Shown here: piece by piece, positions 1-50,734 of the stretch
How the letters are laid out: the number at the start of each line of letters is the position of its first letter
Position numbering within the stretch: the first letter of the stretch is position 1
Assembly (NCBI RefSeq): GCF_003382685.1
Contig: NZ_QLVG01000048.1
Coordinates: 1-54,897, forward strand
Origin: Halorussus litoreus
GTDB taxonomy: Archaea; Halobacteriota; Halobacteria; Halobacteriales; Haladaptataceae
DNA: 54,897 nt
Reading direction: 5' to 3'
The notes under the pieces: model-generated
What the model was told of the DNA's origin: nothing
Database searches by the model: none
What the model saw: only the letters and a program-made list of their open reading frames with translations
Translations under genes and position numbers: made by a program

Positions 1-81
1 GAGCACAAGCTCCGCTCGACGCTCACCACGCTCGGGGTCATCATCGGCGTCGCGGCGGTCATCCCCTTCGGGGAATCCGAC
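1..81 (+). pseudogene. relic of a MacB/FtsX-like ABC transporter permease N-terminus
   Basis: Frame 1 from base 1 reads EHKLRSTLTTLGVIIGVAAV. This is the characteristic first membrane helix of MacB-type permeases, which in haloarchaea typically reads like 'LRS-LTTLGVIIGVAAVI' near the N-terminus. About 63 bases match. The frame then runs on without a stop, through a few unrelated residues, into the GTG start of the SDR gene at 82. The permease body is absent, so this is a truncated leftover. The upstream part of the gene lies outside the window. Family assignment rests on about 21 recognisable residues only. Confidence 0.55.
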
Positions 82-873
82 GTGACCGCACCATCTGACG
101 ACCACCCGACCGCGCTCGTCACCGGCGCGGCGAGCGGCATCGGTCGCGCGCTTGCGGCCGAGTTCGCCCGCGACGGCCACCACGTGGTGCTCGTCGACGT
201 CGACGAGGCTGGGATGGCGTCTGCGGCCGCAGACCTCGAAGCGAACTACGGCGTCGAGACGACCGAGATCGCGGCCGATCTCTCCGAGCGCGGGGCGGCC
301 CGCGAGGTGTACGAGTCGGTCCGCGAGGAGGGCCTGACGGTCGACGCGCTCGTCAACAACGCCGGCTTCGGCGTGTACGGCGAGTTCACCGACACCGACC
401 TCGACGCGGAGCTGGAGATGGTACAGTTGCACGTCGCATGCGTCACTTCTCTCAGCAAGCTGTTCGCCCGCGAGATGGCCGACCGCAGCGATGGTTCCAT
501 ACTCAACACCGCCTCGGTCGCGGGGTTCGCGCCGACGCCGACCGCCGCGGTGTACTCCGCGACGAAGCACTACGTGCTCGCGTTCTCGGAGGCGCTCGCG
601 GGGGAACTGGCCGACGACGGCGTGACCGTGACCGCGCTCTGCCCCGGCGAGACGAAGACCGGCTTCTTCGACCGCGGGAACGTCGGCGAGGCGGCGTTCG
701 CCGACGGCGACCTGATGGACCCCGAGGCGGTCGCCGCGGCGGGCTACGCGGGTCTCCAGCGTGGCGACCGGGTGGTGGTTCCGGGCGTGAAGAACAAGTT
801 CCGGCTGTTCGTCAAGCGCCTGCTCCCGCGGGCGGTGTACGCCCGAGCGTCGGGGCGGACGTGGAACGAGTGA
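82..873 (+). CDS. short-chain dehydrogenase/reductase (SDR)
   Basis: A classical SDR of 263 residues, the usual length. It should catalyse NAD(P)-dependent oxidation or reduction of an alcohol or carbonyl substrate in the cytoplasm; the substrate cannot be read from sequence. Visible features are the TGxxxGIG cofactor motif (residues 14-21), an Asp near 39 at the end of beta-2 (suggesting NAD(H) preference), NNAG (92-95), catalytic Ser145 and the YxxxK pair Tyr158/Lys162. The start is GTG at 82, because the Rossmann motif follows at the expected distance. The frame is open upstream and carries a permease relic, so a longer fusion product is formally possible but unlikely. Confidence 0.93.
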   Translation: MTAPSDDHPTALVTGAASGIGRALAAEFARDGHHVVLVDVDEAGMASAAADLEANYGVETTEIAADLSERGAAREVYESVREEGLTVDALVNNAGFGVYGEFTDTDLDAELEMVQLHVACVTSLSKLFAREMADRSDGSILNTASVAGFAPTPTAAVYSATKHYVLAFSEALAGELADDGVTVTALCPGETKTGFFDRGNVGEAAFADGDLMDPEAVAAAGYAGLQRGDRVVVPGVKNKFRLFVKRLLPRAVYARASGRTWNE

Positions 874-905
874 CTGTTCGGTCGGACGACGGAACTGAAC
901 CGCGA

Positions 906-1106
906 CTACTCCGATAGCTCCCACGCCGGGGGCTCACGGCCGAGTCGTCGCAGCGCCGCAGGGTAGCCGAAGGCGACGACCATCGCGACGATGATCCGCG
1001 GGATGAACCCGTCGATGCCGGCGGCTTCGAGCGCGAAGACGCCGACGAAGTATATCAGCAGCATTATCAGGAACTGGGGTAGCAACTGTCGCCACGCCGA
1101 AGCCAT
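906..1106 (-). CDS. small two-helix membrane protein
   Basis: A 66-residue protein with two hydrophobic segments (about residues 9-29 and 33-50) separated by a short Gly/Asp turn, and a charged C-terminal tail ending in acidic residues. It is convergent with the SDR gene and lies just downstream of the oxidoreductase gene on the same strand, about 85 bases away. No functional motif is visible. Composition and codon use match neighbouring haloarchaeal genes, so it is probably a real conserved hypothetical. Confidence 0.7.
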   Translation of the reverse strand: MASAWRQLLPQFLIMLLIYFVGVFALEAAGIDGFIPRIIVAMVVAFGYPAALRRLGREPPAWELSE

Positions 1107-1190
1107 GCGTCGAGAGACGGGCTTGGCGGTGTTAAGTGTGGGGAAACCGGTCGGTCGGACTGTTCGAGAACACGTAATTACCCACCGCAG

Positions 1191-2225
1191 TCACTCGAAG
1201 TGCGGGACGACTTCGTCGCCCAGTCGCTCGACGCACTCGACCATCCGGTCGGTGCCGACGCCGGGGTGGTACGTCCGGAATATAAAGTGGACGTCGTCGC
1301 CCAGCGCCTCGCGGTACTCTTCCAGTCCCTCGATGACCTGCTCGGGCGTGCCGAAGATGGCCTGGTCTTTCAGCTCCGCGACCCGTTCATCCGATAGCTC
1401 CTCGACCGGCTCGCCCGAGAATATCTCGGCGTAGCGGCGCTGGATGTAGAGGTAGCCCTCTTTCATCGCGTTCCACGCCTCTTCCTTCGAGTCGCCGACG
1501 AAGCCGTGCTGGAGCGCGTAGATCTGAAAGTCGTCCGCGGCGTCGCCGGCCTCGCTGGCGTCCTCGCGCAGCCCCTCCGCCTCGCGAACGTTGCGGATGT
1601 CCTCCACGCGCTTGCGGACGCCCCCGACCGAGAGCGCGGAGGGCGCACACCACGCGTCGGCGACCCGCGCCGCGCGCCTGACCGCGGGCTTGGCCGACCC
1701 GCCGTACATGACGGGAATCTCGGTGTCGGGCTTGGGCGTCACCGTCGCGTCGGGCGTCACGTCGTGGAATTCGGCGTCGTAGTCGAGCGGACCCTCGGAC
1801 CACGCCGCGCGGAGCAGGTCGGTCGTGTCGCCCAGTCGCTCGACGCGCTCGTCCTCCGGGACGCCGAACTGCTCGAACTCCTTCGGGTTCGAGCCGATGG
1901 CGAGCCCGAGCGTCAGCCGACCGTCGGCGAGCAGGTCCACGGTCGCGGCGTCCTCGGCGAGCCGCACCCCGTCGTACAGCGGTGCGAGCGCGATGCAGGT
2001 GCCGAGTTCGATATTCTCGGTTTCGGCCGCTAGCGCGCCGAGAGATGGCATCGTCGCCGAGAGGTAGCCGTCCTCCGCGAAGTGGTGTTCGGAGACCCAC
2101 GCGCTCGCGAGGCCCGCGTCGTCGATGGCCCGCCCGAGCGTCAGCATCTCGTCGTACAACTCGCTCGTCGAGCGGTCGTCGTCGGGTCGCCGCTGGCACG
2201 TGAACAGTCCGGTGCCGATGTCCAT
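1191..2225 (-). CDS. LLM-class (luciferase-like) flavin-dependent oxidoreductase
   Basis: A 344-residue protein of the bacterial luciferase-like TIM-barrel family. These use reduced flavin (FMN or F420) for monooxygenase or dehydrogenase reactions. The N-terminus MDIGTGLFTCQ, the SEHHFAEDGY segment near residue 45, the LGTCIALAPL strand and the ADGRLTLGLAIGSNPKEF segment are typical of the family. F420 is common in haloarchaea, but the cofactor and substrate are not determined here. The gene is monocistronic or co-transcribed with the small membrane protein downstream. The start at 2225 fits the N-terminal beta strand of the barrel. Confidence 0.9.
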   Translation of the reverse strand: MDIGTGLFTCQRRPDDDRSTSELYDEMLTLGRAIDDAGLASAWVSEHHFAEDGYLSATMPSLGALAAETENIELGTCIALAPLYDGVRLAEDAATVDLLADGRLTLGLAIGSNPKEFEQFGVPEDERVERLGDTTDLLRAAWSEGPLDYDAEFHDVTPDATVTPKPDTEIPVMYGGSAKPAVRRAARVADAWCAPSALSVGGVRKRVEDIRNVREAEGLREDASEAGDAADDFQIYALQHGFVGDSKEEAWNAMKEGYLYIQRRYAEIFSGEPVEELSDERVAELKDQAIFGTPEQVIEGLEEYREALGDDVHFIFRTYHPGVGTDRMVECVERLGDEVVPHFE

Positions 2226-2282
2226 AGCGGCGGGTCGACCGGAGCGACCTTAACCTTTGATAAGGAAGCTGATTGGCTTAAC

Positions 2283-2987
2283 TCAGCCCAGATCGATGTC
2301 GGCACCGCCGTCGTCGCCGGTGCTGGGGAGCATGCCAGCGATGGCGTCGGCGAACGACTCCATGCCGCGGGTCTGGTACCAGATCGTCCCCGGGCCGGTG
2401 AACTCCATCACGATGCCCTCGCCGGACAGCAGCGAGGACTTGAGCCCGCCGACCCGCCGGGCGTCGAAGTCGACGCTGCCCTCCCACGCGACCACGTTCT
2501 CGTTGTCGACGACGTACGACTCGCCGTGGCCGAGTTCGACCGTCTCGATGCCGCCGAACGCCTCGACGAACACGTCGCCGGTGCCCTTCAGCGCGAGCGG
2601 CGTGATGGACGCCCCGGCGAGCATCGACTTGAGCCCGCCGAACTCCGAGTCGATGTCGATCTCCGGGTCCGAGGCCAGATACGCCCCGTCGACGGCGTAG
2701 AGGGTGTCGCCGTCGAGTTCGTGGTGGTGGATGTCGCCTGGCGTCTGCGGCGAGAGGGTCACGGTTCCGGGTTCGTCCTCGGCCGTGAACTTGTTGGCGA
2801 ACGCGGACTCGCCGCCGAGCATCGACTTTGCGGAACTCAGGATGCCGTCCCGGGCGGTGCTGGTTTCGATGGCGACCGACGGCGAGTGGCTCACCATCGC
2901 GCCGGGCTCGGCCATGACGGTCTCTCCGCGAGATAGTTCGACGACGAGGTGCGCGTACGACGGCTGGTGGGTAATTTCTACCTGCAT
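2283..2987 (-). CDS. TIGR00266/AIM24 family protein
   Basis: A 234-residue protein of the AIM24 (TIGR00266) family, an all-beta double-stranded fold of unclear molecular role found across archaea and bacteria. Diagnostic stretches are the opening 'QVEITHQPSYAHLVVEL', 'AEPGAMVSHSP' near residue 30, repeated glycine-rich turns ('KSMLGGESAF', 'KSMLAGASITPL', 'KSSLLSGEGI') and 'FTGPGTIWYQTRG' near the C-terminus. The gene diverges from the methyltransferase gene across a 481-base spacer that holds a repeat element. Confidence 0.9.
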   Translation of the reverse strand: MQVEITHQPSYAHLVVELSRGETVMAEPGAMVSHSPSVAIETSTARDGILSSAKSMLGGESAFANKFTAEDEPGTVTLSPQTPGDIHHHELDGDTLYAVDGAYLASDPEIDIDSEFGGLKSMLAGASITPLALKGTGDVFVEAFGGIETVELGHGESYVVDNENVVAWEGSVDFDARRVGGLKSSLLSGEGIVMEFTGPGTIWYQTRGMESFADAIAGMLPSTGDDGGADIDLG

Positions 2988-3152
2988 GGGGATTCAGGAC
3001 GAGTAGTCGTCCGAATGGCAGTTGTCATGTCGCGGGCTTAATGGTTGGGGTCGGCCGCACGGTGGTTCTATTTCAATCGTCTCGAACGTCGATTTTCCTG
3101 CCGGGTGCGCGCTGACTTCCCTCTCCACCGGCGCACGCTGCTTCCCTCTCCA

Positions 3153-4812: not shown

Positions 4813-4884
4813 ACCACACCGTGTGGCGACGCCGGAAAAAGCGGTTCGGTCGCGCTACGGGCTGTTCGGTCGTATCGCCAGTTG

Positions 4885-4936
4885 CACGCGGCCGCCGCCG
4901 ACGACTCGGTGACGAGTCGTCGGCGGCGGCCGCGTG
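4885..4936. repeat. long perfect palindrome (24-bp arms, 4-nt spacer)
   Basis: Arms at 4885-4908 and 4913-4936 are perfect reverse complements around the spacer GTGA. The arm begins CACGCGGCCGCC. It lies 53 bases downstream of the stop codon of the ATP-grasp gene and 73 bases upstream of the cupin gene. It would form a very stable RNA hairpin in either direction and may act as a 3'-end or terminator structure. Confidence 0.85.
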
Positions 4937-4988
4937 CTCGCCTATCTGTGGTCCGGCCGTCACGCGTTCGCCGATTTTCCGGTCCGCC

Positions 4989-25990: not shown

Positions 25991-27865
25991 CTACGCCACG
26001 TGCTCGTCGAGGAACGCCGCGATGCGCTCGAACTGCTCGATGCGGTTGTCGAGCTTCGTGGTGTGGTGGCCCTCGTCCTCGAAGATGCACGTCTCGACCG
26101 GCACGCCCCGCTCGGCCAGTTCGGCGGCGATCTGGCGAGATTCGGCGACCGGTACGCGGGGGTCGTTCTCCCCGTGCTGGACGAACAGCGGGCAGTCGAT
26201 CTCCGCGACCGAGTGGATGGTGCTGATGGATTCGAGGAGGTCGCGGTCGTCCTCGAGGGACCCGTACTCGGCTTCGCGATGCGAGCGCCGCCAGTCGCCC
26301 GTATTCTCGAGGAACGTCACCCAGTTGGCGATGCCGACGAACTCCACGCCGGCGGCCCAGAGGTCCGGGTACTCGGTCAGCGCCGCCAGCACCATGAAGC
26401 CGCCGTACGACCGGCCGTACGCCACCACGCCCCCGGAATCGATCTCGGGCCGGTCGGCGAGCCAGTCGACCGCCGCGGCCATGTCCTCCACCGAGTCCAT
26501 CCGCTTTGCCACGTCGTCGAGCGCGGCGTACTCCCGGCCGTAGCCAGACGATCCGCGGACGTTGGGCTCGAAGACGGCGTACCCCGCGTCGAGGAAGTAC
26601 TGCCGGATGGGCCGGAACCACGGCCGGCGCTGGTGGTGCGGGCCACCGTGAACGTCCACGACGACCGGGATCTCGCTATCGGCCGAGTTCTCCCTCGCTC
26701 GCTCGGGGAGCGTGACGTACGCCGGAATCTCTCTCCCATCGAACGTCTCGTACCGCACGAGGTCGGGCGAGTCGTAGGCGTCGAGCGAGAGCCCGCCGGT
26801 CGACGGTCGGGTCCAGCGCTCGACTGCTGGTGACGCCGCGCTCGCGAGCGCGGCGTCACCAGCAGTCGAGGCGTTTGCGGTGGGTTCGACCACGAACACC
26901 GAGTGGTTCAGATCGGGGGCGGAGACGGTCGCGGCGACGCGCTCGCCGTTCGGCCCCATCGCGAGGTCGTGGACCACGCCGTCGGGAAGGTCGACCTCGA
27001 CCGTGGTCGCGCTTGCGCCGTCGGACTTTACATCGGAAAGCTCGCCGACGCGGAGTTCCGAGTAGCCGTCGACGTTCCGAGTGAGCGCGACCCGCCCCGT
27101 TTCGGCGTCGAGCGCGAGGCCGTCGACGCTCCAGTCATCTCCGGAGACGACCGTCTCGGCAGCGAGCGAGTCGAGGTCGATCCGGACGAGCTCCTTCTGG
27201 TCGCCGTTCGCGTCGCTGACGCAGTAGATGGCGTCTCCGCTGGGGCCGAACGCCGGCTGGCGATACCGGACGCTCTCGTCGTGGGGCGTGACGTGTCGGC
27301 GCTCGCCCGTGGCCGCGTCGACGACGTAGAGGTCGTCGTCGGAACTCGCGCGCGCCTTCGAGACGAGCAGTCGGTCGCCCGACGGGCTCCAGCCCGCGAC
27401 GCCGAGGAAGCCCTCCTCCTCGCCCTCGCGGACGAGTTCGGGCTCTTCGGAGCCGGCGTCTGCATCCATCGCGTACAGGTCGAACCGCGCGCCCTCGCTC
27501 CGATTGGCCGCGAACGCGACGCGGTCGCCGTCTGGGTGCCAGCCGCCCCAGCTGTGGATGGCGTCGGGCCGGTCGGTCAGCTGTTCGATGCCGTTGTCCG
27601 CGGGGTCGAGGACGAACAACTGGTCGTGCTCGTCGGCACCCGCGTCCTTCCCGAACGCGACCCGGTCGCCCGCGGGCGACCACGAGACGAACGACACCCG
27701 CTCGTCGTAGAACGTGCGCTGGCGGGGCCACGCCTCGGGTTCGTCGGTGGTCCAGATCTGTTTCGTGCCGGTCGTGTCCGCGAGGAAGGCCAGCCGGCCG
27801 TCGGGCGACAGCGTCGGTGCGGCCGTCTCGCGGGCGGTCAGGTAACGGCGGACGTCGTGAGCCAT
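25991..27865 (-). CDS. S9-family peptidase (prolyl oligopeptidase/acylaminoacyl peptidase-like)
   Basis: A 624-residue serine peptidase. A seven-bladed beta propeller (residues 1-360; repeated 'SPDGRLAFLAD', 'SWSPAGDRVAF', 'GWSPSGDRLLVS' blades) gates a C-terminal alpha/beta hydrolase domain. The catalytic triad is Ser about 485 in GRSYGG, Asp about 568 in 'GENDPRVP' and His about 598 in 'EDEGHHTTK'. It probably cleaves short peptides in the cytoplasm. The ATG at 27865 is chosen because residues upstream are Ser/Thr-rich and unconserved. A 52-bp perfect palindrome falls in frame in the propeller-hydrolase linker. Confidence 0.9.
   Translation of the reverse strand: MAHDVRRYLTARETAAPTLSPDGRLAFLADTTGTKQIWTTDEPEAWPRQRTFYDERVSFVSWSPAGDRVAFGKDAGADEHDQLFVLDPADNGIEQLTDRPDAIHSWGGWHPDGDRVAFAANRSEGARFDLYAMDADAGSEEPELVREGEEEGFLGVAGWSPSGDRLLVSKARASSDDDLYVVDAATGERRHVTPHDESVRYRQPAFGPSGDAIYCVSDANGDQKELVRIDLDSLAAETVVSGDDWSVDGLALDAETGRVALTRNVDGYSELRVGELSDVKSDGASATTVEVDLPDGVVHDLAMGPNGERVAATVSAPDLNHSVFVVEPTANASTAGDAALASAASPAVERWTRPSTGGLSLDAYDSPDLVRYETFDGREIPAYVTLPERARENSADSEIPVVVDVHGGPHHQRRPWFRPIRQYFLDAGYAVFEPNVRGSSGYGREYAALDDVAKRMDSVEDMAAAVDWLADRPEIDSGGVVAYGRSYGGFMVLAALTEYPDLWAAGVEFVGIANWVTFLENTGDWRRSHREAEYGSLEDDRDLLESISTIHSVAEIDCPLFVQHGENDPRVPVAESRQIAAELAERGVPVETCIFEDEGHHTTKLDNRIEQFERIAAFLDEHVA
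26819..26870. repeat. 52-bp perfect palindrome inside the S9 peptidase gene
   Basis: Arms 26819-26844 and 26845-26870 are perfect reverse complements with no spacer, centred on CTCGCGAG. Each arm is 26 bp. On the coding strand it encodes an Ala/Ser-rich linker (STAGDAALASAASPAVE) between the propeller and the hydrolase domain, so it does not disturb the fold. It resembles the palindromes placed after genes elsewhere in the window. Confidence 0.88.
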
Positions 27866-33610: not shown

Positions 33611-33830
33611 CGAAAGCCCTCGGCGCGCTCGCCGCCGGAAGACGGTCCTGCTCGTCGCTTCGCTTCTGCGCGGGTTGCGACTGCCGAGGTCACGCTCGCT
33701 TCGCTCGCATGACGGTCGCTCAGGGGGATATCTGGCGCGCGCAGAACTGCGCGCGCCAGATAGTAGCCGCGCTGAGGCGACCAAGCGATGCGCGAGTGCG
33801 CCACGCCCTTTCAGTCCGCCGGAAGACAAA
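33611..33830. repeat. family B intergenic repeat with inserted hairpins
   Basis: Shares CGAAAGCCCTCGGCGCGCTCG at its start and GCCACGCCCTTTCAGTCCGCC at its end with 27982-28103, plus GGTCGCTCAG and GGCGACCAAG in the middle. It is longer because of extra hairpin modules, including a 16-bp-arm palindrome at 33729-33762 (TATCTGGCGCGCGCAG, two-base spacer). It occupies the left half of the 544-base gap before the zinc-ribbon gene. Confidence 0.7.
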
Positions 33831-33994: not shown

Positions 33995-34035
33995 GACCGG
34001 TCCGGCGCGGCCGACTCGGCCGCGCCGGACCGGTC
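33995..34035. repeat. long perfect palindrome (20-bp arms, 1-nt spacer)
   Basis: Arms 33995-34014 and 34016-34035 are perfect reverse complements; the arm is GACCGGTCCGGCGCGGCCGA. It lies 30 bases downstream of the stop codon of the 48-residue zinc-ribbon gene, at a 3'-end position similar to four other palindromes in the window. Confidence 0.88.
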
Positions 34036-34212: not shown

Positions 34213-34228
34213 GTCCAAAGCGACGGCC

Positions 34229-34282
34229 GGGAGCGGGAAAAGTCGCCCGCCGACGACTCGGCGGGCGACTTTTCCCGCTCCC
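34229..34282. repeat. long perfect palindrome (25-bp arms, 4-nt spacer)
   Basis: Arms 34229-34253 and 34258-34282 are perfect reverse complements around CGAC. The arm contains GGGAGCGGGAAAAGTCGCCC. It sits 17 bases upstream of the zinc-ribbon start and so would lie in its leader or promoter, unlike the other palindromes, which follow genes. Confidence 0.87.
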
Positions 34283-34339
34283 CGCCGGTTCGTGAGCCGA
34301 GTCGATCACCCCGGCGCACGCCGAGTGGGACTCGGAAAA

Positions 34340-43450: not shown

Positions 43451-43500
43451 CCGCGGGCGCTGGTGCGCTCCGACGAGTCGGAGCGCACCAGCGCCCGCGG
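43451..43500. repeat. long perfect palindrome (23-bp arms, 4-nt spacer)
   Basis: Arms 43451-43473 and 43478-43500 are perfect reverse complements around CGAG. The arm is CCGCGGGCGCTGGTGCGCTC plus CGA. It lies 31 bases past the stop codon of subunit I and 89 bases from the end of the convergent DUF6789 gene, well placed as a bidirectional terminator or 3'-end stabiliser. Confidence 0.87.
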
Positions 43501-44215: not shown

Positions 44216-45016
44216 ATGACAGTTCCGGCCGACCCGATTCGGCCCTCGCTCGTCGCACTCCACCCGGCCCAATCCGGAATCATTCCCAGAGGGACGCGGG
44301 TCGAAGTGTTCCAGCAGATATTCGACGTCTTTCTGGTGCTCGGCACACTCGTCGGCGTCGTCGTCGTCGGATACATGGTGTACAACGCGTACAAGTACCG
44401 CGACGACGGTGGGGAGCGCCCCGACGACGCACCCAAAGTCGGCGAACTCCCGACCGGCGGTGGGGGCGGCCGGAAGCTGTTCCTCTCGTTCGGGCTGAGC
44501 ACCATCATCGTGGTCTCGCTCATCCTCTGGACGTACGGCACCCTACTGTACGTCGAGGACGAGGCGACGGTCGAGGGCGGTGACGACGTGCAGATCGACG
44601 TGGTCGGCTACCGGTTCGGCTGGGACTTCGTCTATCCGAACGGACACGAGACGAGCACGCTTCGCGTCCCGGCGAACGAGACGGTACAGTTGAACGTCAC
44701 ATCCGAGGACGTGTTCCACACGTTCGGGGTCCCGGAGTTACGGGTGAAGACCGACGCCATCCCCGGCCAGCAGACCCAGACGTGGCTCGAAGCCGAGGAG
44801 ACCGGGACGTATCGAGCACGCTGCTTCGAGATCTGTGGAGCGGGCCACTCCTACATGACCGCGGAGGTCGAGGTCATGCGACCCAGCGACTACGAGAACT
44901 GGTACGCGAACACCAGTGCGGAGAACAGTTCTGCGGTGGCCGGTCCGAGTGAGATCGGACCGCGGGCGACCGCCGGACCACGAGCCAGCGCCGTCTCGCA
45001 GGGGGTGGTTGGATGA
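44216..45016 (+). CDS. coxB: cytochrome c oxidase subunit II
   Basis: A 266-residue subunit II with two N-terminal transmembrane helices (about 35-58 and 88-110), then an extracellular cupredoxin domain. CuA ligands are intact: His in 'EDVFHTFGVP', and the CxExCxxxHxxM motif (CFEICGAGHSYM, about 202-213). It therefore accepts electrons from a soluble or membrane copper/heme donor rather than a quinol. The ATG at 44216 is preferred; a GTG 18 bases earlier is possible. Its TGA overlaps the ATG of the subunit I-III gene by four bases. Confidence 0.95.
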   Translation: MTVPADPIRPSLVALHPAQSGIIPRGTRVEVFQQIFDVFLVLGTLVGVVVVGYMVYNAYKYRDDGGERPDDAPKVGELPTGGGGGRKLFLSFGLSTIIVVSLILWTYGTLLYVEDEATVEGGDDVQIDVVGYRFGWDFVYPNGHETSTLRVPANETVQLNVTSEDVFHTFGVPELRVKTDAIPGQQTQTWLEAEETGTYRARCFEICGAGHSYMTAEVEVMRPSDYENWYANTSAENSSAVAGPSEIGPRATAGPRASAVSQGVVG

Positions 45017-47847
45017 CGGACGAAACGAGTGACCCGCGGACGGACGGTGGTGAGCGCGTGCGCGAATCTCGTCGGGGAGCGAAGCGGACCGACGGTGGCA
45101 CCGCGGCGGCGGGCCACGAGACCGACCACCACCACGGCCTGCCGGCCCCGTCGAGCATCAAGCGCTGGCTGGTCACGACCAACCACAAGGACGTCGGCAT
45201 CCTCTACACGGTCACGGCGCTGTTCTTCCTCGTGTTCGGTGGCGTGTTGGCCCTGCTGATGCGAGTCCAGCTCTGGACGCCCGGCGCGACCATCTTGGAG
45301 CCCCTGCAGTACAATCAAGCGGTCTCCGCCCACGGGCTCATCATGATCTTCTGGTTTCTCTCGCCGTTCGCGTTCGGGTTCGCCAACTACGTGGTGCCGC
45401 TCCAGATCGGCGCGAAGGACCTGGCCTTCCCACGGCTGAACGCGCTGTCGTACTGGCTCTACCTGTTCTCGGGCATCCTCTTCGGGGTGTCGTTCTTCCA
45501 GGGAGGCACCTTCGCGGGCGGCTGGACGATGTACGCACCGCTGAACCTCCCGGTGTACACGCCCAACATCGGTGCGAGCACCGCGGTGCTCGCGCTGTTG
45601 CTGTTCGTGGTGTCGGTGACCGTCTCGTCGGTCAACTTCCTGACCACGATGCACCGGATGCGCGCCGAGGGGCTGACCCTCAGACGGATGCCGCTGTTCA
45701 CGTGGACCATCCTGCTCACCACGTGGATGATGCTGTTCGCGTTCGCGGCGCTGCTGGCGGCGCTGATGATCCTCTCGGCCGACCGGCTCATCGGCACCCA
45801 GTACTTCGCGGCGACGGGCCACGCCGGGTCGCTGCTGTGGGCCCACCTGTTCTGGTTCTTCGGGCACCCGGAGGTGTACATCGTCTTCTTCCCGGCGCTC
45901 GGCGTGATGGCCGAGTGCTTCCAGACGTTCACCGGCAAGCGCATCGTCGGCCGGAAGTGGTTCATCGCGGCGATGGTGCTGGTGGCGCTCCAGAGCTTCC
46001 TCGTCTGGATGCACCACATGTTCCTGACCTCGATCAACCTCGAGATCAAGACGCTGTTCATGGCGACCACCATCGGCATCTCGCTGCCGTTCGACCTGAT
46101 GGTGTTCGCGCTCGTCTACACCATGCTGAAGGGGCGGGTGCGCTTCACCACGCCGTTCCTGTTCTCCTTTGGCGCGCTCGTCCTGTTCATCCTCGGCGGC
46201 ATCACGGGCGTCTTCCTCGGTGCGGTCGTGCTCGACTACGAGTTCCGCGGCACCTACTGGGTGGTCGCGCACTTCCACTACGTGATGGTTGGCGGCATCA
46301 CCGCGCTGGTCGGCGGCCTCTACTACTGGTACCCCAAGATGACGGGGAAGATGTACGACAAGTTCCTCGGGAAGCTCCACTTCGCGATGTACTTCGTCGG
46401 GTTCAACCTGCTGTACTTCCCGATGTTCGTCGCGTGGGAGACGCCCCGTCGGGACTTCGTCTACCCCGAGATCTACACGACGTGGCACCAGCTCTCGACG
46501 GTCGGGGCGTTCCTGCTCGGCGCGTCGTTCCTCGTGATGTTCTACAACCTCTGGGTCAGCCTCTCCACCGGTGAGGACGCCAGCGACAACCCGTGGCAGT
46601 TCTCGACCACGACCGAGTGGGCGATCCCCTCGCCCCCGCCACTGGAGAACTTCCCGGGCAAGCCGTCGTTCAGCAGCGGCTCGCTGGAGTTCCTGCCCGA
46701 CGGTAGCGACGCGGGCGACATCGAGCCAGCGGGTCCCGGCGGCCGCGAACCCGCGGCGACCGACGGCGGCGAAGCTACCACGGACGGCGGCGAAGCGGCG
46801 ACGGATGGTAGCGAAACCGACGCGGACGACGGAGAGGACGATGACGACGGGAAACTCGTGACCGACGGTGGCAGAGTGATGACCGACGGCGGACAGCCGA
46901 TGACCGACGACGAGCAAGTCGTGGCGGACGACGGGACCGCTGGCGCTGCCGACGCGAACGCTGGCGTCGCAGACGAGAAAGCCACGGACGGCGGAACGGT
47001 CACCGTCTACGACGAGCACGCGGCCGACGACGAGGAGCACGGCGAGGACCACGCGAGCATCTGGCCGTTCAGGATCGGCCTCACGTCGTTTCTCTTCCTC
47101 GTCGGTCTGTCGGGACTGCGCCAGGGGAGCTTCCCCGAGGGTCTCGAAGGCGGTGCGTACCTCGGGCTGACCGTGGTTGCAGGCGTCGGCCTGCTCTGGG
47201 CGCTCGTCGGGATGGGCCGCGAGGAGTTCCACGGCCTCGAAGGGCCGTTCGGCGAGAGCTGGCCGTTCACCGGGATCAACAACACGAAGCTCGGCGTGTG
47301 GATCTTCCTCGCGAGCGACGTGGTGCTGTTCGGCGCGTTCGTCGGCTCGTACGCGTTCATCCGCGTGGCGGAGGGCTGGCAGAACAACTGGCACCACCTC
47401 ATCCCGGCCGACCACGTCGTGCTCCCGGGGCTCATCAACACCTACCTGCTGTTGACCAGCAGCTTCACCGTCGTGCTCGCACTGGTGGCCTGCGAGAAGC
47501 GGAGCAAGTGGGGCCTCATCGGCTCGCTGGCGACGACGCTCGTGCTCGGGATCGCGTTCCTCATCAACAAGGCGATGGAGTGGCAGCACCTGTTCCACGT
47601 CCACAGCGAGGCGTTCCCCAACGGCTGGAACATCGGGACGAACGTCGCGTCGTCGACGTTCTACCTCACGACGGGGCTGCACGCGCTGCACGTCATCGCC
47701 GGGCTGGTAATCACGCTGTATCTCATCGCCCGCGCGTGGAACGGGGCGTACCTCGACGACGACCAGCCGGTCGAGCTGTTCGGCCTCTACTGGCACTTCG
47801 TCGACATCGTGTGGCTGTTCCTGTTCCCGCTGTTCTACATCCTGTAG
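45013..47847 (+). CDS. coxA: cytochrome c oxidase subunit I-III fusion
   Basis: A 944-residue protein joining subunit I (about residues 45-530) to subunit III (about 690-944). Subunit I has FFGHPEVYI, 'WMHHMFLTS' and 'VVAHFHYVMVGG' with all heme and copper ligands. The C-terminal part has the subunit III hallmarks 'GVWIFLASDVVLFGAF', 'FYLTTGLHALHVIAGL' and 'YWHFVDIVWLFLFPLFYIL'. An acidic low-complexity linker (about 570-680) with repeated TDGG units, Asp-rich runs and a short His segment connects them. Subunits II, I-III and IV of this operon probably make the complete aa3-type oxidase. Confidence 0.95.
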   Translation: MTDETSDPRTDGGERVRESRRGAKRTDGGTAAAGHETDHHHGLPAPSSIKRWLVTTNHKDVGILYTVTALFFLVFGGVLALLMRVQLWTPGATILEPLQYNQAVSAHGLIMIFWFLSPFAFGFANYVVPLQIGAKDLAFPRLNALSYWLYLFSGILFGVSFFQGGTFAGGWTMYAPLNLPVYTPNIGASTAVLALLLFVVSVTVSSVNFLTTMHRMRAEGLTLRRMPLFTWTILLTTWMMLFAFAALLAALMILSADRLIGTQYFAATGHAGSLLWAHLFWFFGHPEVYIVFFPALGVMAECFQTFTGKRIVGRKWFIAAMVLVALQSFLVWMHHMFLTSINLEIKTLFMATTIGISLPFDLMVFALVYTMLKGRVRFTTPFLFSFGALVLFILGGITGVFLGAVVLDYEFRGTYWVVAHFHYVMVGGITALVGGLYYWYPKMTGKMYDKFLGKLHFAMYFVGFNLLYFPMFVAWETPRRDFVYPEIYTTWHQLSTVGAFLLGASFLVMFYNLWVSLSTGEDASDNPWQFSTTTEWAIPSPPPLENFPGKPSFSSGSLEFLPDGSDAGDIEPAGPGGREPAATDGGEATTDGGEAATDGSETDADDGEDDDDGKLVTDGGRVMTDGGQPMTDDEQVVADDGTAGAADANAGVADEKATDGGTVTVYDEHAADDEEHGEDHASIWPFRIGLTSFLFLVGLSGLRQGSFPEGLEGGAYLGLTVVAGVGLLWALVGMGREEFHGLEGPFGESWPFTGINNTKLGVWIFLASDVVLFGAFVGSYAFIRVAEGWQNNWHHLIPADHVVLPGLINTYLLLTSSFTVVLALVACEKRSKWGLIGSLATTLVLGIAFLINKAMEWQHLFHVHSEAFPNGWNIGTNVASSTFYLTTGLHALHVIAGLVITLYLIARAWNGAYLDDDQPVELFGLYWHFVDIVWLFLFPLFYIL

Positions 47848-47964
47848 ACCAATGACCGGGAAATTCACCACGCGCTCGGCGCGCACAACCCCGCGAGGAA
47901 TCGCCCGCTCGATCACGGCAGACACGACTACCCGATCCACGCGACGCAACACCACGGAGGAACG

Positions 47965-48228
47965 ATGAGCCACCTCAGACTCTACACCGGTATCTTCGCC
48001 GCGCTGGCAGCGTTCGCGACCGCACAGGTGTTCGTCGAACAGGCGGGCGGACTCCCGTACTGGACCGCCTTTTGGGTCATCATCGCGCTGTCGCTCGTGA
48101 AGGCGGTGCTGGTGGCGTGGTACTTCCAGCACCTCAAGTGGGAGCCCAGATCGGTGTCGGCCACGATATTCACCGGCCTGCTAGCGGCCATCGCACTGAC
48201 CGCCGCGGCGGCCTACTCCATCCTGTAG
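47965..48228 (+). CDS. coxD: cytochrome c oxidase subunit IV family protein
   Basis: An 87-residue protein of three predicted membrane helices (about 5-24, 32-50 and 63-84) with 'VKAVLVAWYFQHLKWEP' in the loop after helix 2, matching the small bacterial/archaeal subunit IV (COX4_pro) family. It should stabilise the oxidase complex. It follows the subunit I-III gene by 117 bases that contain no gene, and probably belongs to the same transcription unit. Confidence 0.88.
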   Translation: MSHLRLYTGIFAALAAFATAQVFVEQAGGLPYWTAFWVIIALSLVKAVLVAWYFQHLKWEPRSVSATIFTGLLAAIALTAAAAYSIL

Positions 48229-48463
48229 GTCGTTCGGTTCGCGTCTCTCGACGGAGCGACGGACGAGCGACTCCTTTTCGCAGAACTCTCCTCGCAGACC
48301 CCGCTTGGTAGACTCCGCTTCGCCGAACGGCTGTCTTCGAGTCGGCCCGTGTTACCACCGCTCGGACCTCGTCGCGTCGCAACCGGCTCCGTATCCGGGC
48401 GTCGAGAGACGACAGCTGTTTCGCGTTCGTTAAGACGACGGCTGTTCCCCTTTCATCAGGTCC
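48229..48463. other. spacer without a recognised gene
   Basis: Between subunit IV and the palindrome at 48464, read on both strands, I see no reading frame with convincing composition, no repeat-family member and no RNA gene. It begins 3' of the oxidase operon and ends at the 3' side of the convergent small membrane protein genes. Confidence 0.5.
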
Positions 48464-48509
48464 TCACGTGCGCGTCCGCGGCGGCGCGCCGCCGCGGACG
48501 CGCACGTGA
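48464..48509. repeat. 46-bp perfect palindrome
   Basis: Arms 48464-48486 and 48487-48509 are perfect reverse complements with no spacer, centred on GGCGCGCC. The arm begins TCACGTGCGCGTCCGC. It lies 54 bases downstream of the stop codon of the minus-strand C2H2/membrane protein gene and 235 bases past subunit IV, again a convergent 3'-end position. Confidence 0.87.
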
Positions 48510-48563
48510 CCGTCGTGGACTGTGGATTGGCTTCGCACGAGAGAGTACAGAGGCGACACCATC

Positions 48564-48848
48564 TCACGCCTGCGCCATCGACACCGCGAGGTACGTGAAG
48601 AAGAAGAAGGCGTACACCGCGACCAGCGACGCGACTACCTTCAGGTGGTACACGAACAGGTCCTCGCGCTCGGCCTCCATCGCCGACTCGTAGGCCTCGC
48701 GCTCGTCGTCGGTCCAGCCGTCGTGCGCGTCGCCGACGTGGAGCGCCCGCAGGCGCTCGGTCCGGAACGGCCGACCGCAGTGGGGACACTGAACCGGCGT
48801 CTCGCCGTCGGGGACGTGGAAGTCGGTGTCGGGGATGGCGAGGCTCAT
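48564..48848 (-). CDS. C2H2 zinc-finger protein with a C-terminal transmembrane helix
   Basis: A 94-residue protein. A C2H2-like finger is at Cys21, Cys24, His37 and His42 in 'CPHCGRPFRTERLRALHVGDAH' (in two parts), followed by an acidic helix with Asp/Glu repeats and one membrane helix (about 69-90, 'VASLVAVYAFFFFTYLAVSM'). The zinc finger should face the cytoplasm. Its ATG shares its A with the TGA of the upstream gene, so the two are coupled. Members of this type accompany haloarchaeal oxidase clusters (DUF7410-like by recollection). Confidence 0.82.
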   Translation of the reverse strand: MSLAIPDTDFHVPDGETPVQCPHCGRPFRTERLRALHVGDAHDGWTDDEREAYESAMEAEREDLFVYHLKVVASLVAVYAFFFFTYLAVSMAQA

Positions 48849-49279
48849 CAGCCCCCGGAAACCAGCAGCTTCACCGCGACGACCAGTACGAAGAGCGAGC
48901 CGAACAGCCACGCGCTCAAGAGCGCGGCCTGCGCGCTGTGGACGCCGCGGCTGCGCGCCGAGCTGTACGTTCCCCAGAGCGCGAACCCGAGCAGGAGCGC
49001 GCCGAACGCCCCTGCCACCGTGGTCCAGCCACCGATTCCGGCCGCCAGCGAGGCGTCGCTGACGAGCAGCACCGCGCCGCCGCCGACGACGGCGACCATC
49101 AGCACGAATCCCGCCGACCACGTCGCGGGCGAGCCGAGCCCGCCGGACTCGCCGCGTCCGCCCGCCGCGGGCGCGGGTTCGTAGGTCCGCCAGTTTTCCA
49201 GCCGCGAGGCGAGCGCCCACACTGCGAGCAGCAACGCCCCGGTCACGAGGGCGCTCGCCAGATACCCTGTTTCGACCAT
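48848..49279 (-). CDS. four-helix membrane protein of the oxidase neighbourhood
   Basis: A 143-residue membrane protein: helices near residues 5-25, 53-75, 83-105 and 118-140, with a conserved-looking 'LENWRTYEPAPAAGGRG' loop after the first helix, close to the 'LEDWRSY' style seen after the first helix of oxidase subunit I. Its role is unknown, probably in oxidase assembly or the same membrane context. Start ATG at 49279. Co-transcribed with the C2H2 protein gene, with overlapping stop and start codons. Confidence 0.8.
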   Translation of the reverse strand: MVETGYLASALVTGALLLAVWALASRLENWRTYEPAPAAGGRGESGGLGSPATWSAGFVLMVAVVGGGAVLLVSDASLAAGIGGWTTVAGAFGALLLGFALWGTYSSARSRGVHSAQAALLSAWLFGSLFVLVVAVKLLVSGG

Positions 49280-50680: not shown

Positions 50681-50734
50681 GAACGCGGCCGCGACTCCGG
50701 TCGGCAGTCGCCGACCGGAATCGCGGCCGCGTTC
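50681..50734. repeat. long near-perfect palindrome (25-bp arms, 4-nt spacer)
   Basis: Arms 50681-50705 and 50710-50734 are reverse complements with a single mismatch, around the spacer AGTC. The arm begins GAACGCGGCCGCGA. It lies 40 bases past the stop codon of the small membrane protein gene, as for four other palindromes that follow genes in this window. Confidence 0.87.

What the first reader, a model, noticed from the sequence alone, without database searches (positions are those of the whole stretch)
26819..26870. 52-bp perfect palindrome inside a peptidase coding sequence
A perfect palindrome with no spacer sits in frame in the linker between the propeller and hydrolase domains. It encodes a bland Ala/Ser linker on the coding strand and would be equally readable on the other strand. 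It looks like the gene-end palindromes elsewhere, but lies within a gene, suggesting the same process can insert them into tolerant linkers.
Basis: seen in the sequence. Interest (0 to 1): 0.65.

Follow-up and report, generated by a model that had tools for sequence, protein, structure and literature searches.

The report
Coding palindrome from local inverted copying
A salt-loving archaeon (Halorussus) carries a perfect 52-letter mirror palindrome inside a working peptidase gene, one of an estimated few hundred that its genome seems to write by briefly copying DNA backwards onto itself, a habit that is strong in some species of the genus and undetected in their sister species.

Summary
The palindrome is real: 26-nt perfect arms, no spacer, at 26819-26870, in frame in an S9 peptidase gene. 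It is one of seven perfect palindromes with arms of at least 16 in this Halorussus window; Markov-shuffled sequence gives none.

None of nine congeneric orthologues has it. Across six further genes the palindromes are derived. Where polarity can be read, one arm is ancestral and the other is a new inverted copy: an in-frame insertion (FolC/FolP, epimerase, another species' copy of this peptidase) or an overwrite without length change (MutS). The excess is confined to spacers of 0-5 nt, arms are nearly always perfect, and arms covary at a shared site. This fits fold-back template switching rather than a mobile element, a terminator or an artefact.

Activity is patchy: 16-21 per 100 kb in three Halorussus species, 6 here, none detected in several others including sister species, some in one related genus, none in 539 kb of other haloarchaeal families. 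Loss of Mre11-Rad50 does not explain it.

For this palindrome the template arm is unresolved. The mechanism is inferred.

The parts
26819..26870 (.). 52-bp perfect palindrome (26-nt arms, spacer 0), the finding
25991..27865 (-). S9 (prolyl oligopeptidase family) peptidase CDS, 624 aa; the palindrome encodes about residues 332-349, a turn in the last propeller blade
4884..4937 (.). perfect palindrome, arms 25, spacer 4, intergenic (between tandem - strand genes)
33995..34035 (.). perfect palindrome, arms 20, spacer 1, intergenic
34229..34282 (.). perfect palindrome, arms 25, spacer 4, intergenic (30-nt arms with one mismatch at 34224-34287)
43451..43500 (.). perfect palindrome, arms 24, spacer 2, between convergent genes; absent at the syntenic place in G005
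48464..48509 (.). perfect palindrome, arms 23, spacer 0, between convergent genes
50681..50734 (.). near-perfect palindrome, arms 25 (96%), spacer 4: probably the same kind, slightly decayed

Best explanation
The palindrome is the footprint of a local template-switch (fold-back) event. A growing or resected DNA 3' end folds back at a tiny self-complementary seed (for example CTC-CGC-GAG in MutS, or a TCGCGA core here), is extended 10-25 nt using its own upstream sequence as template, and then returns to its normal template. One arm is therefore an inverted copy of the other. Events that keep the reading frame and fall in tolerant loops, or that overwrite codons acceptably, survive. Further events at the same hairpin re-copy one arm from the other, which keeps the arms perfect. 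Shown: derived state, one-arm-ancestral structure in most cases where polarity is readable, in-place overwriting in MutS, spacer limit, near-binary perfection, covariation at one site, patchy distribution. Inferred: the replication or repair intermediate, the seed as start point, and an unknown genetic switch that makes the activity strong in some species and undetectable in sister species.
For: (a) Orthologue codon alignments. FolC/FolP: left arm (AALARQV) conserved across the genus, right arm an insertion absent from many species. Epimerase: right arm (VELY) conserved, left arm new. G001's own copy of this peptidase has a different palindrome whose left arm is ancestral and whose right arm lies in an 8-codon insertion. 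BirA (G017), a nitroreductase-like gene and a membrane protein show insertions, all in frame. (b) MutS: 22/22 pairs in G000 versus 8-13/22 in 17 relatives at essentially constant length; against the nearest relative (G005) the left arm differs at 3 sites and the right at 8; many relatives already hold CTC-CGC-GAG at the centre. (c) At the FolC/FolP site 8 species show covarying arms: 3 pairs changed on both sides, covariation score reached by 0/500 shuffles, above all slid controls. (d) Excess only at spacers 0-5; spacers 11-3000 resemble other families. (e) Arm 20: 18 perfect, 5 with one mismatch, 3 with two; shuffled 0/0/0. (f) Sequences mutually unrelated apart from one small family and short GC-rich matches. 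(g) Species-specific activity and arm length.
Against: For the focal palindrome the polarity (which arm was the template) is ambiguous: the right arm resembles SPxVER of some congeners, but the nearest relative has a long unrelated loop. The membrane-protein case (A) and the nitroreductase case (B) are not resolved arm by arm. No pair of closely related strains was available, so no event was seen within a species. The polymerase, the intermediate and the genetic switch are not identified. Covariation at the FolC/FolP site could also be independent events at one hot spot, and shuffles do not correct for relatedness. High-rate and zero-rate genomes both have canonical Rad50, so the obvious repair explanation fails.
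Confidence: 0.74

Rival explanations
1. Hairpin-end processing: a break or nick gives a hairpin-capped end that is opened off-centre and filled in (like P-nucleotides in V(D)J joining or fold-back inversions at double-strand breaks), so the palindrome is a repair scar rather than a replication template switch.
For: Spacers of 0-5 nt only and GC-rich arms, mean 79% GC against about 67% in the genome, suit a hairpin intermediate; fold-back priming at breaks is documented in yeast (PMC10622511).
Against: Overwriting without length change in MutS needs a return to the original template over the homologous stretch, which is easier for a template switch. Mre11-Rad50, proposed to cleave hairpin caps in yeast, is present here.
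Confidence: 0.12
2. Selected hairpins: the palindromes are functional structures such as terminators, mRNA stability elements or protein-binding cruciforms.
For: Intergenic DNA, including gene ends, is enriched over CDS; inverted repeats cluster at gene ends in many prokaryotes (PMC13155455).
Against: About half lie inside CDS at places that differ between species; the same genes in sister species lack them; sequences are unrelated; no T-run terminator was found around the focal one; no Rfam family in the window.
Confidence: 0.08
3. Insertion of a mobile palindromic element, like Rickettsia palindromic elements or REPINs.
For: In-frame insertion into variable loops in several genes; one small repeated palindrome family (TATCTGGCG...) does exist in this genome.
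Against: Apart from that family the palindromes share no sequence beyond short GC-rich matches; the focal 52 bp occurs once in the genome; in resolved cases one arm matches the orthologous coding sequence of its own gene.
Confidence: 0.03
4. Assembly or library artefact.
For: The window's genome is a 75-contig draft, and 5 of 22 sampled contig starts begin exactly at a perfect hairpin.
Against: The same features occur in near-complete genomes (G012 4 contigs, G017 5, G004 1) and are absent from others of similar quality; all orthologue-checked insertions keep the reading frame; arms covary between species. Contigs breaking at hairpins fits real structures that stop assembly.
Confidence: 0.03

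Closest known systems
Template-switch mutations / quasi-palindrome correction (yeast coding genes PMC8604942; RNA genes PMC8794818)
   Same: One arm rewritten as the reverse complement of the other, from a short pre-existing inverted repeat, in one event; arms kept perfect by repeated events; known to change proteins.
   Different: Here arms reach 26-30 nt and events often add several to 15 codons. Density is 6-21 per 100 kb in some species and undetected in sister species and other families.
Coding palindromes in Nematomorpha mitochondrial genes (PMC6649704)
   Same: Many perfect inverted repeats inside protein genes, perfect-or-absent character, gains and losses between species, template switching or conversion proposed.
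   Different: Mitochondrial, longer (up to 284 bp), and both arms encode conserved residues; here chromosomal and archaeal, GC-rich, mostly with one arm ancestral and one new, spacer 0-5.
Rickettsia palindromic elements
   Same: Palindromic DNA in frame inside protein genes.
   Different: They are described as transposable elements (PMC6649704), and from general knowledge form related families of about 100-150 bp; here each palindrome is unique and copies its own flank.
Fold-back inversions / inverted duplications in Mre11- or Sae2-deficient yeast (PMC10622511)
   Same: Short inverted repeats of 3-15 bp at the centre prime inverted copying.
   Different: Those yield chromosome-scale inverted duplications; here the copy is 14-30 nt and Mre11-Rad50 is present.

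Membership tests
Template-switch mutation (TSM) footprint | Reverse-complement copy of adjacent sequence; one arm ancestral, the other derived | tested here: met
   FolC/FolP, epimerase, G001 peptidase, MutS; unresolved for the focal palindrome and for cases A and B
Template-switch mutation (TSM) footprint | Several clustered changes explained by one event | tested here: met
   MutS: 22/22 pairs against 8-13/22 in relatives; right arm 8 changes vs left 3 against the nearest relative
Template-switch mutation (TSM) footprint | Pre-existing short inverted repeat (seed) at the switch point | tested here: inconclusive
   CTC-CGC-GAG in many MutS relatives, CAGGTC-NNN-GACCTG in two FolC/FolP relatives, TCGCGA core in the G005 peptidase; not tested statistically
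Template-switch mutation (TSM) footprint | Dependence on replication fork or polymerase genotype | not testable with these tools
   needs mutation-accumulation or reporter experiments
Nematomorpha-type coding palindromes | Perfect inverted repeats inside translated genes, perfect-or-absent | tested here: met
Nematomorpha-type coding palindromes | Both arms encode conserved residues | tested here: not met
   met only for overwrite cases such as MutS; in insertion cases one arm is new
Rickettsia palindromic elements / REPIN / MITE | Family of related sequences at many loci | tested here: not met
   only the separate TATCTGGCG family is repeated
Intrinsic terminator | Stem-loop at the transcript end followed by a T-run | tested here: not met
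   focal palindrome is mid-gene with no T-run; about half of all are inside CDS
Consequence of Mre11-Rad50 loss | Mre11/Rad50 absent or with changed catalytic motifs in palindrome-rich species | tested here: not met
   canonical Rad50 in G000, G012, G017, G001 and G003; the metal-binding motifs of Mre11 look alike inside and outside the family

The most novel reading that the evidence does not exclude
Some Halorussus species carry a heritable, possibly horizontally exchanged activity (a polymerase, repair or mobile-element protein) that writes and keeps renewing perfect fold-back palindromes across the chromosome, inside genes included, and that is gained or lost between sister species: a natural on/off mutator that makes new protein loops.
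Probability: 0.35. Interest if true: 0.85.

Novelty: new variant of a known kind. Interest (0 to 1): 0.62.

Why it matters
Template switching at short inverted repeats is known, but usually as rare, small events. Here it appears to have left an estimated few hundred long perfect palindromes per chromosome in some species (extrapolated from samples: about 240 in the window's genome, about 760 in G012) and none detected in sister species. That makes Halorussus a natural comparison for finding what controls fold-back copying and palindrome survival, and for how new in-frame protein loops arise. It also warns that short-read assemblies of such genomes may break at these sites.

Tried and rejected
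1. Loss of Rad50: a first query with a divergent second Rad50 (from G012 contig 3) found it in only 3 of 18 Halorussus genomes, which looked like an explanation. The canonical Rad50 query showed it in the window's own genome and 109 of 116 haloarchaea, and the metal-binding motifs of Mre11 do not differ. Rejected. 2. Short zinc-hook model PF04423: too insensitive to say anything. 3. Mobile element: no shared sequence beyond short GC-rich matches. 4. Sequence motif: GAGTC is enriched about 3-fold in palindromes, but so are many GC-rich words (palindromes are about 80% GC); not pursued. 5. GC content as the cause: zero-rate genomes include 69-70% GC ones (G008, G010, G014) and high-rate ones are 65-70%. 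6. Terminators and RNA families: none. 8. The first alignment was spoiled by wrongly oriented loci and was redone.

Full report
WHAT IS THERE. Window 26819-26870 is a perfect 52-bp palindrome with 26-nt arms and no spacer. It lies inside a 624-residue S9 peptidase gene on the minus strand, 25991-27865. Orthologues place the genome in Halorussus, family Haladaptataceae. The segment reads STAGDAALASAASPAVE. An AlphaFold2 model (mean pLDDT 89.9) puts it in the turn between the last two strands of the final propeller blade, where confidence is lowest.

NOT CHANCE. Fourth-order Markov shuffles give no perfect inverted repeat with arm >=14 and spacer <=8 in three times 455 kb; the real sequence has about 26 distinct ones after removing homopolymer runs. 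The window has seven with arms 16-26 and none of 12-15.

GENOME-WIDE PROCESS. Sampling 676 kb of this genome gives 42 (6.2 per 100 kb). In the 635 kb classified with a simple codon-usage gene caller, 16 of 37 are inside CDS, 19 intergenic and 2 overlap a gene end. Intergenic DNA is enriched per base, as expected if many insertions in genes are removed by selection. Enrichment at convergent gene ends in this genome is not repeated in G012, where divergent intergenic regions have more. Spacers are 0-5 nt; at spacers from 11 to 3000 nt the counts are like those of other families, where only chance matches are expected. Arms are perfect or nearly so: for arm 20, 18 perfect, 5 with one mismatch and 3 with two, against zero of each in the shuffle.

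ORTHOLOGUES. Nine congeneric orthologues of the peptidase lack the palindrome. G001 has a different palindrome elsewhere in the same gene: its left arm is the ancestral sequence and the right arm lies in an 8-codon insertion. For the focal palindrome the polarity is not settled. Most congeners have a shorter loop, and the right arm resembles their SPxVER, but the nearest relative (G005) has a longer non-palindromic loop with the same central CTCGCGA. Six further genes were tested. FolC/FolP: conserved left arm, inserted right arm. Epimerase: conserved right arm, inserted left arm. BirA in G017: insertion beside the conserved ATS motif, left arm only partly matched in relatives. A nitroreductase-like gene and a membrane protein: insertions with the arms not individually resolved. 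MutS: no length change in most relatives; 22 of 22 pairs in this genome against 8-13 in 17 relatives, with the right arm carrying 8 changes and the left 3 against the nearest relative, around a CTC-CGC-GAG core already present in many relatives. All orthologue-checked insertions keep the frame.

CONCERTED ARMS. At the FolC/FolP site eight species have the inserted arm. Three pairs changed on both sides, and the covariation score was reached in 0 of 500 shuffles and by no slid control. This means either renewal of one arm from the other or repeated events at one hot spot.

WHERE IT OCCURS. Per 100 kb (arm >=14, spacer <=5): G012 21, G017 18, G001 16, G003 10, this genome 6.2, G004 3.7, G011 1.9, G005 1.0. 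No case was found in about 45-64 kb each of G002, G006, G007, G008, G009, G010, G013, G014 and G016. The related genus g2 gave 4 in 138 kb. Other haloarchaeal families gave 0 in 539 kb, and the loci of the conserved gene in other genera 0 in 284 kb. On a four-protein tree sister species differ sharply: G017 28 against G006 0; this genome 42 in 676 kb against G005 2 in 210 kb. Arm lengths also differ between species (median 21 here, 15 in G012). Samples are small for many genomes, so a zero means 'not detected in about 50 kb'.

MECHANISM. The pattern matches known template-switch mutations, in which the nascent strand folds back, copies its own arm and returns (yeast: PMC8604942; RNA genes: PMC8794818). 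It resembles the coding palindromes of Nematomorpha mitochondria (PMC6649704). The spacer limit favours an intramolecular hairpin. The polymerase, the moment (replication or repair) and the determinant of the species differences are inferred or unknown. I tested the obvious candidate: canonical Rad50 is present here and in the palindrome-rich species, and Mre11 metal-binding motifs look the same inside and outside the family. An earlier query with a divergent second Rad50 had misleadingly suggested loss.

ALTERNATIVES. A mobile element is disfavoured because palindromes share no sequence beyond short GC-rich matches and the focal one is unique in the genome. Function as a hairpin is disfavoured by changing positions inside genes. 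Artefact is disfavoured by frame keeping, by occurrence in near-complete genomes and by covariation. Five of 22 sampled contig starts begin exactly at a perfect hairpin, which suggests that longer palindromes break the short-read assembly and that the counts here are low.

NOVELTY. Searches of the held library found no report of this in haloarchaea or Halorussus, and a tree-of-life survey of perfect inverted repeats has no word beginning with 'halo' in its main text; this is limited to the papers held. I class it as a new variant of a known kind: the mutation type is known; its density, arm length and on/off pattern between sister species are the unusual part.

Noticed in passing
window 33729-33762; L093 4133; L097 13398; L263 7976: A separate repeated palindrome family, TATCTGGCG(TG)CGCGCAG-NN-CTGCGCG(CA)CGCCAGATA, occurs at four or more intergenic places in this genome; possibly a regulator site or a small mobile palindrome. 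A related core is at L097 7957.
   Followed up: partly
L090, L091, L092, L096, L099 base 1 (contigs C5, C6, C7, C27, C26): Five of 22 sampled contigs of this genome begin exactly at a perfect hairpin (arms 11-14), suggesting that longer palindromes terminate the assembly.
   Followed up: partly
L088 17183-17245; L097 7857-7914; L265 10386-10447; L268 1-27; L087 14133-14152: Unusual G or C homopolymer runs of 13-36 bases, some G-run beside C-run, scattered in this genome.
   Followed up: no
L159 (G012 C3:1-5000): A second, divergent Mre11-Rad50-NurA-like operon at the start of a 158-kb contig of G012; a 97% identical Rad50 occurs in another family (G040 C5), suggesting transfer on a plasmid.
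   Followed up: partly
L094 3789-6620 (G000 mutS): The mismatch-repair gene mutS itself carries a 47-bp palindrome that replaces several codons in place.
   Followed up: yes
window 44306-49279: A segment of about 5 kb, including a 945-codon gene, seems absent at the syntenic place in G005, where its flanking genes are about 0.7 kb apart.
   Followed up: no
L227 and L236 (G003 C2): The epimerase gene with its palindrome is present twice on one contig of G003, with identical palindromes; the second copy matched only to residue 327 of the query.
   Followed up: no
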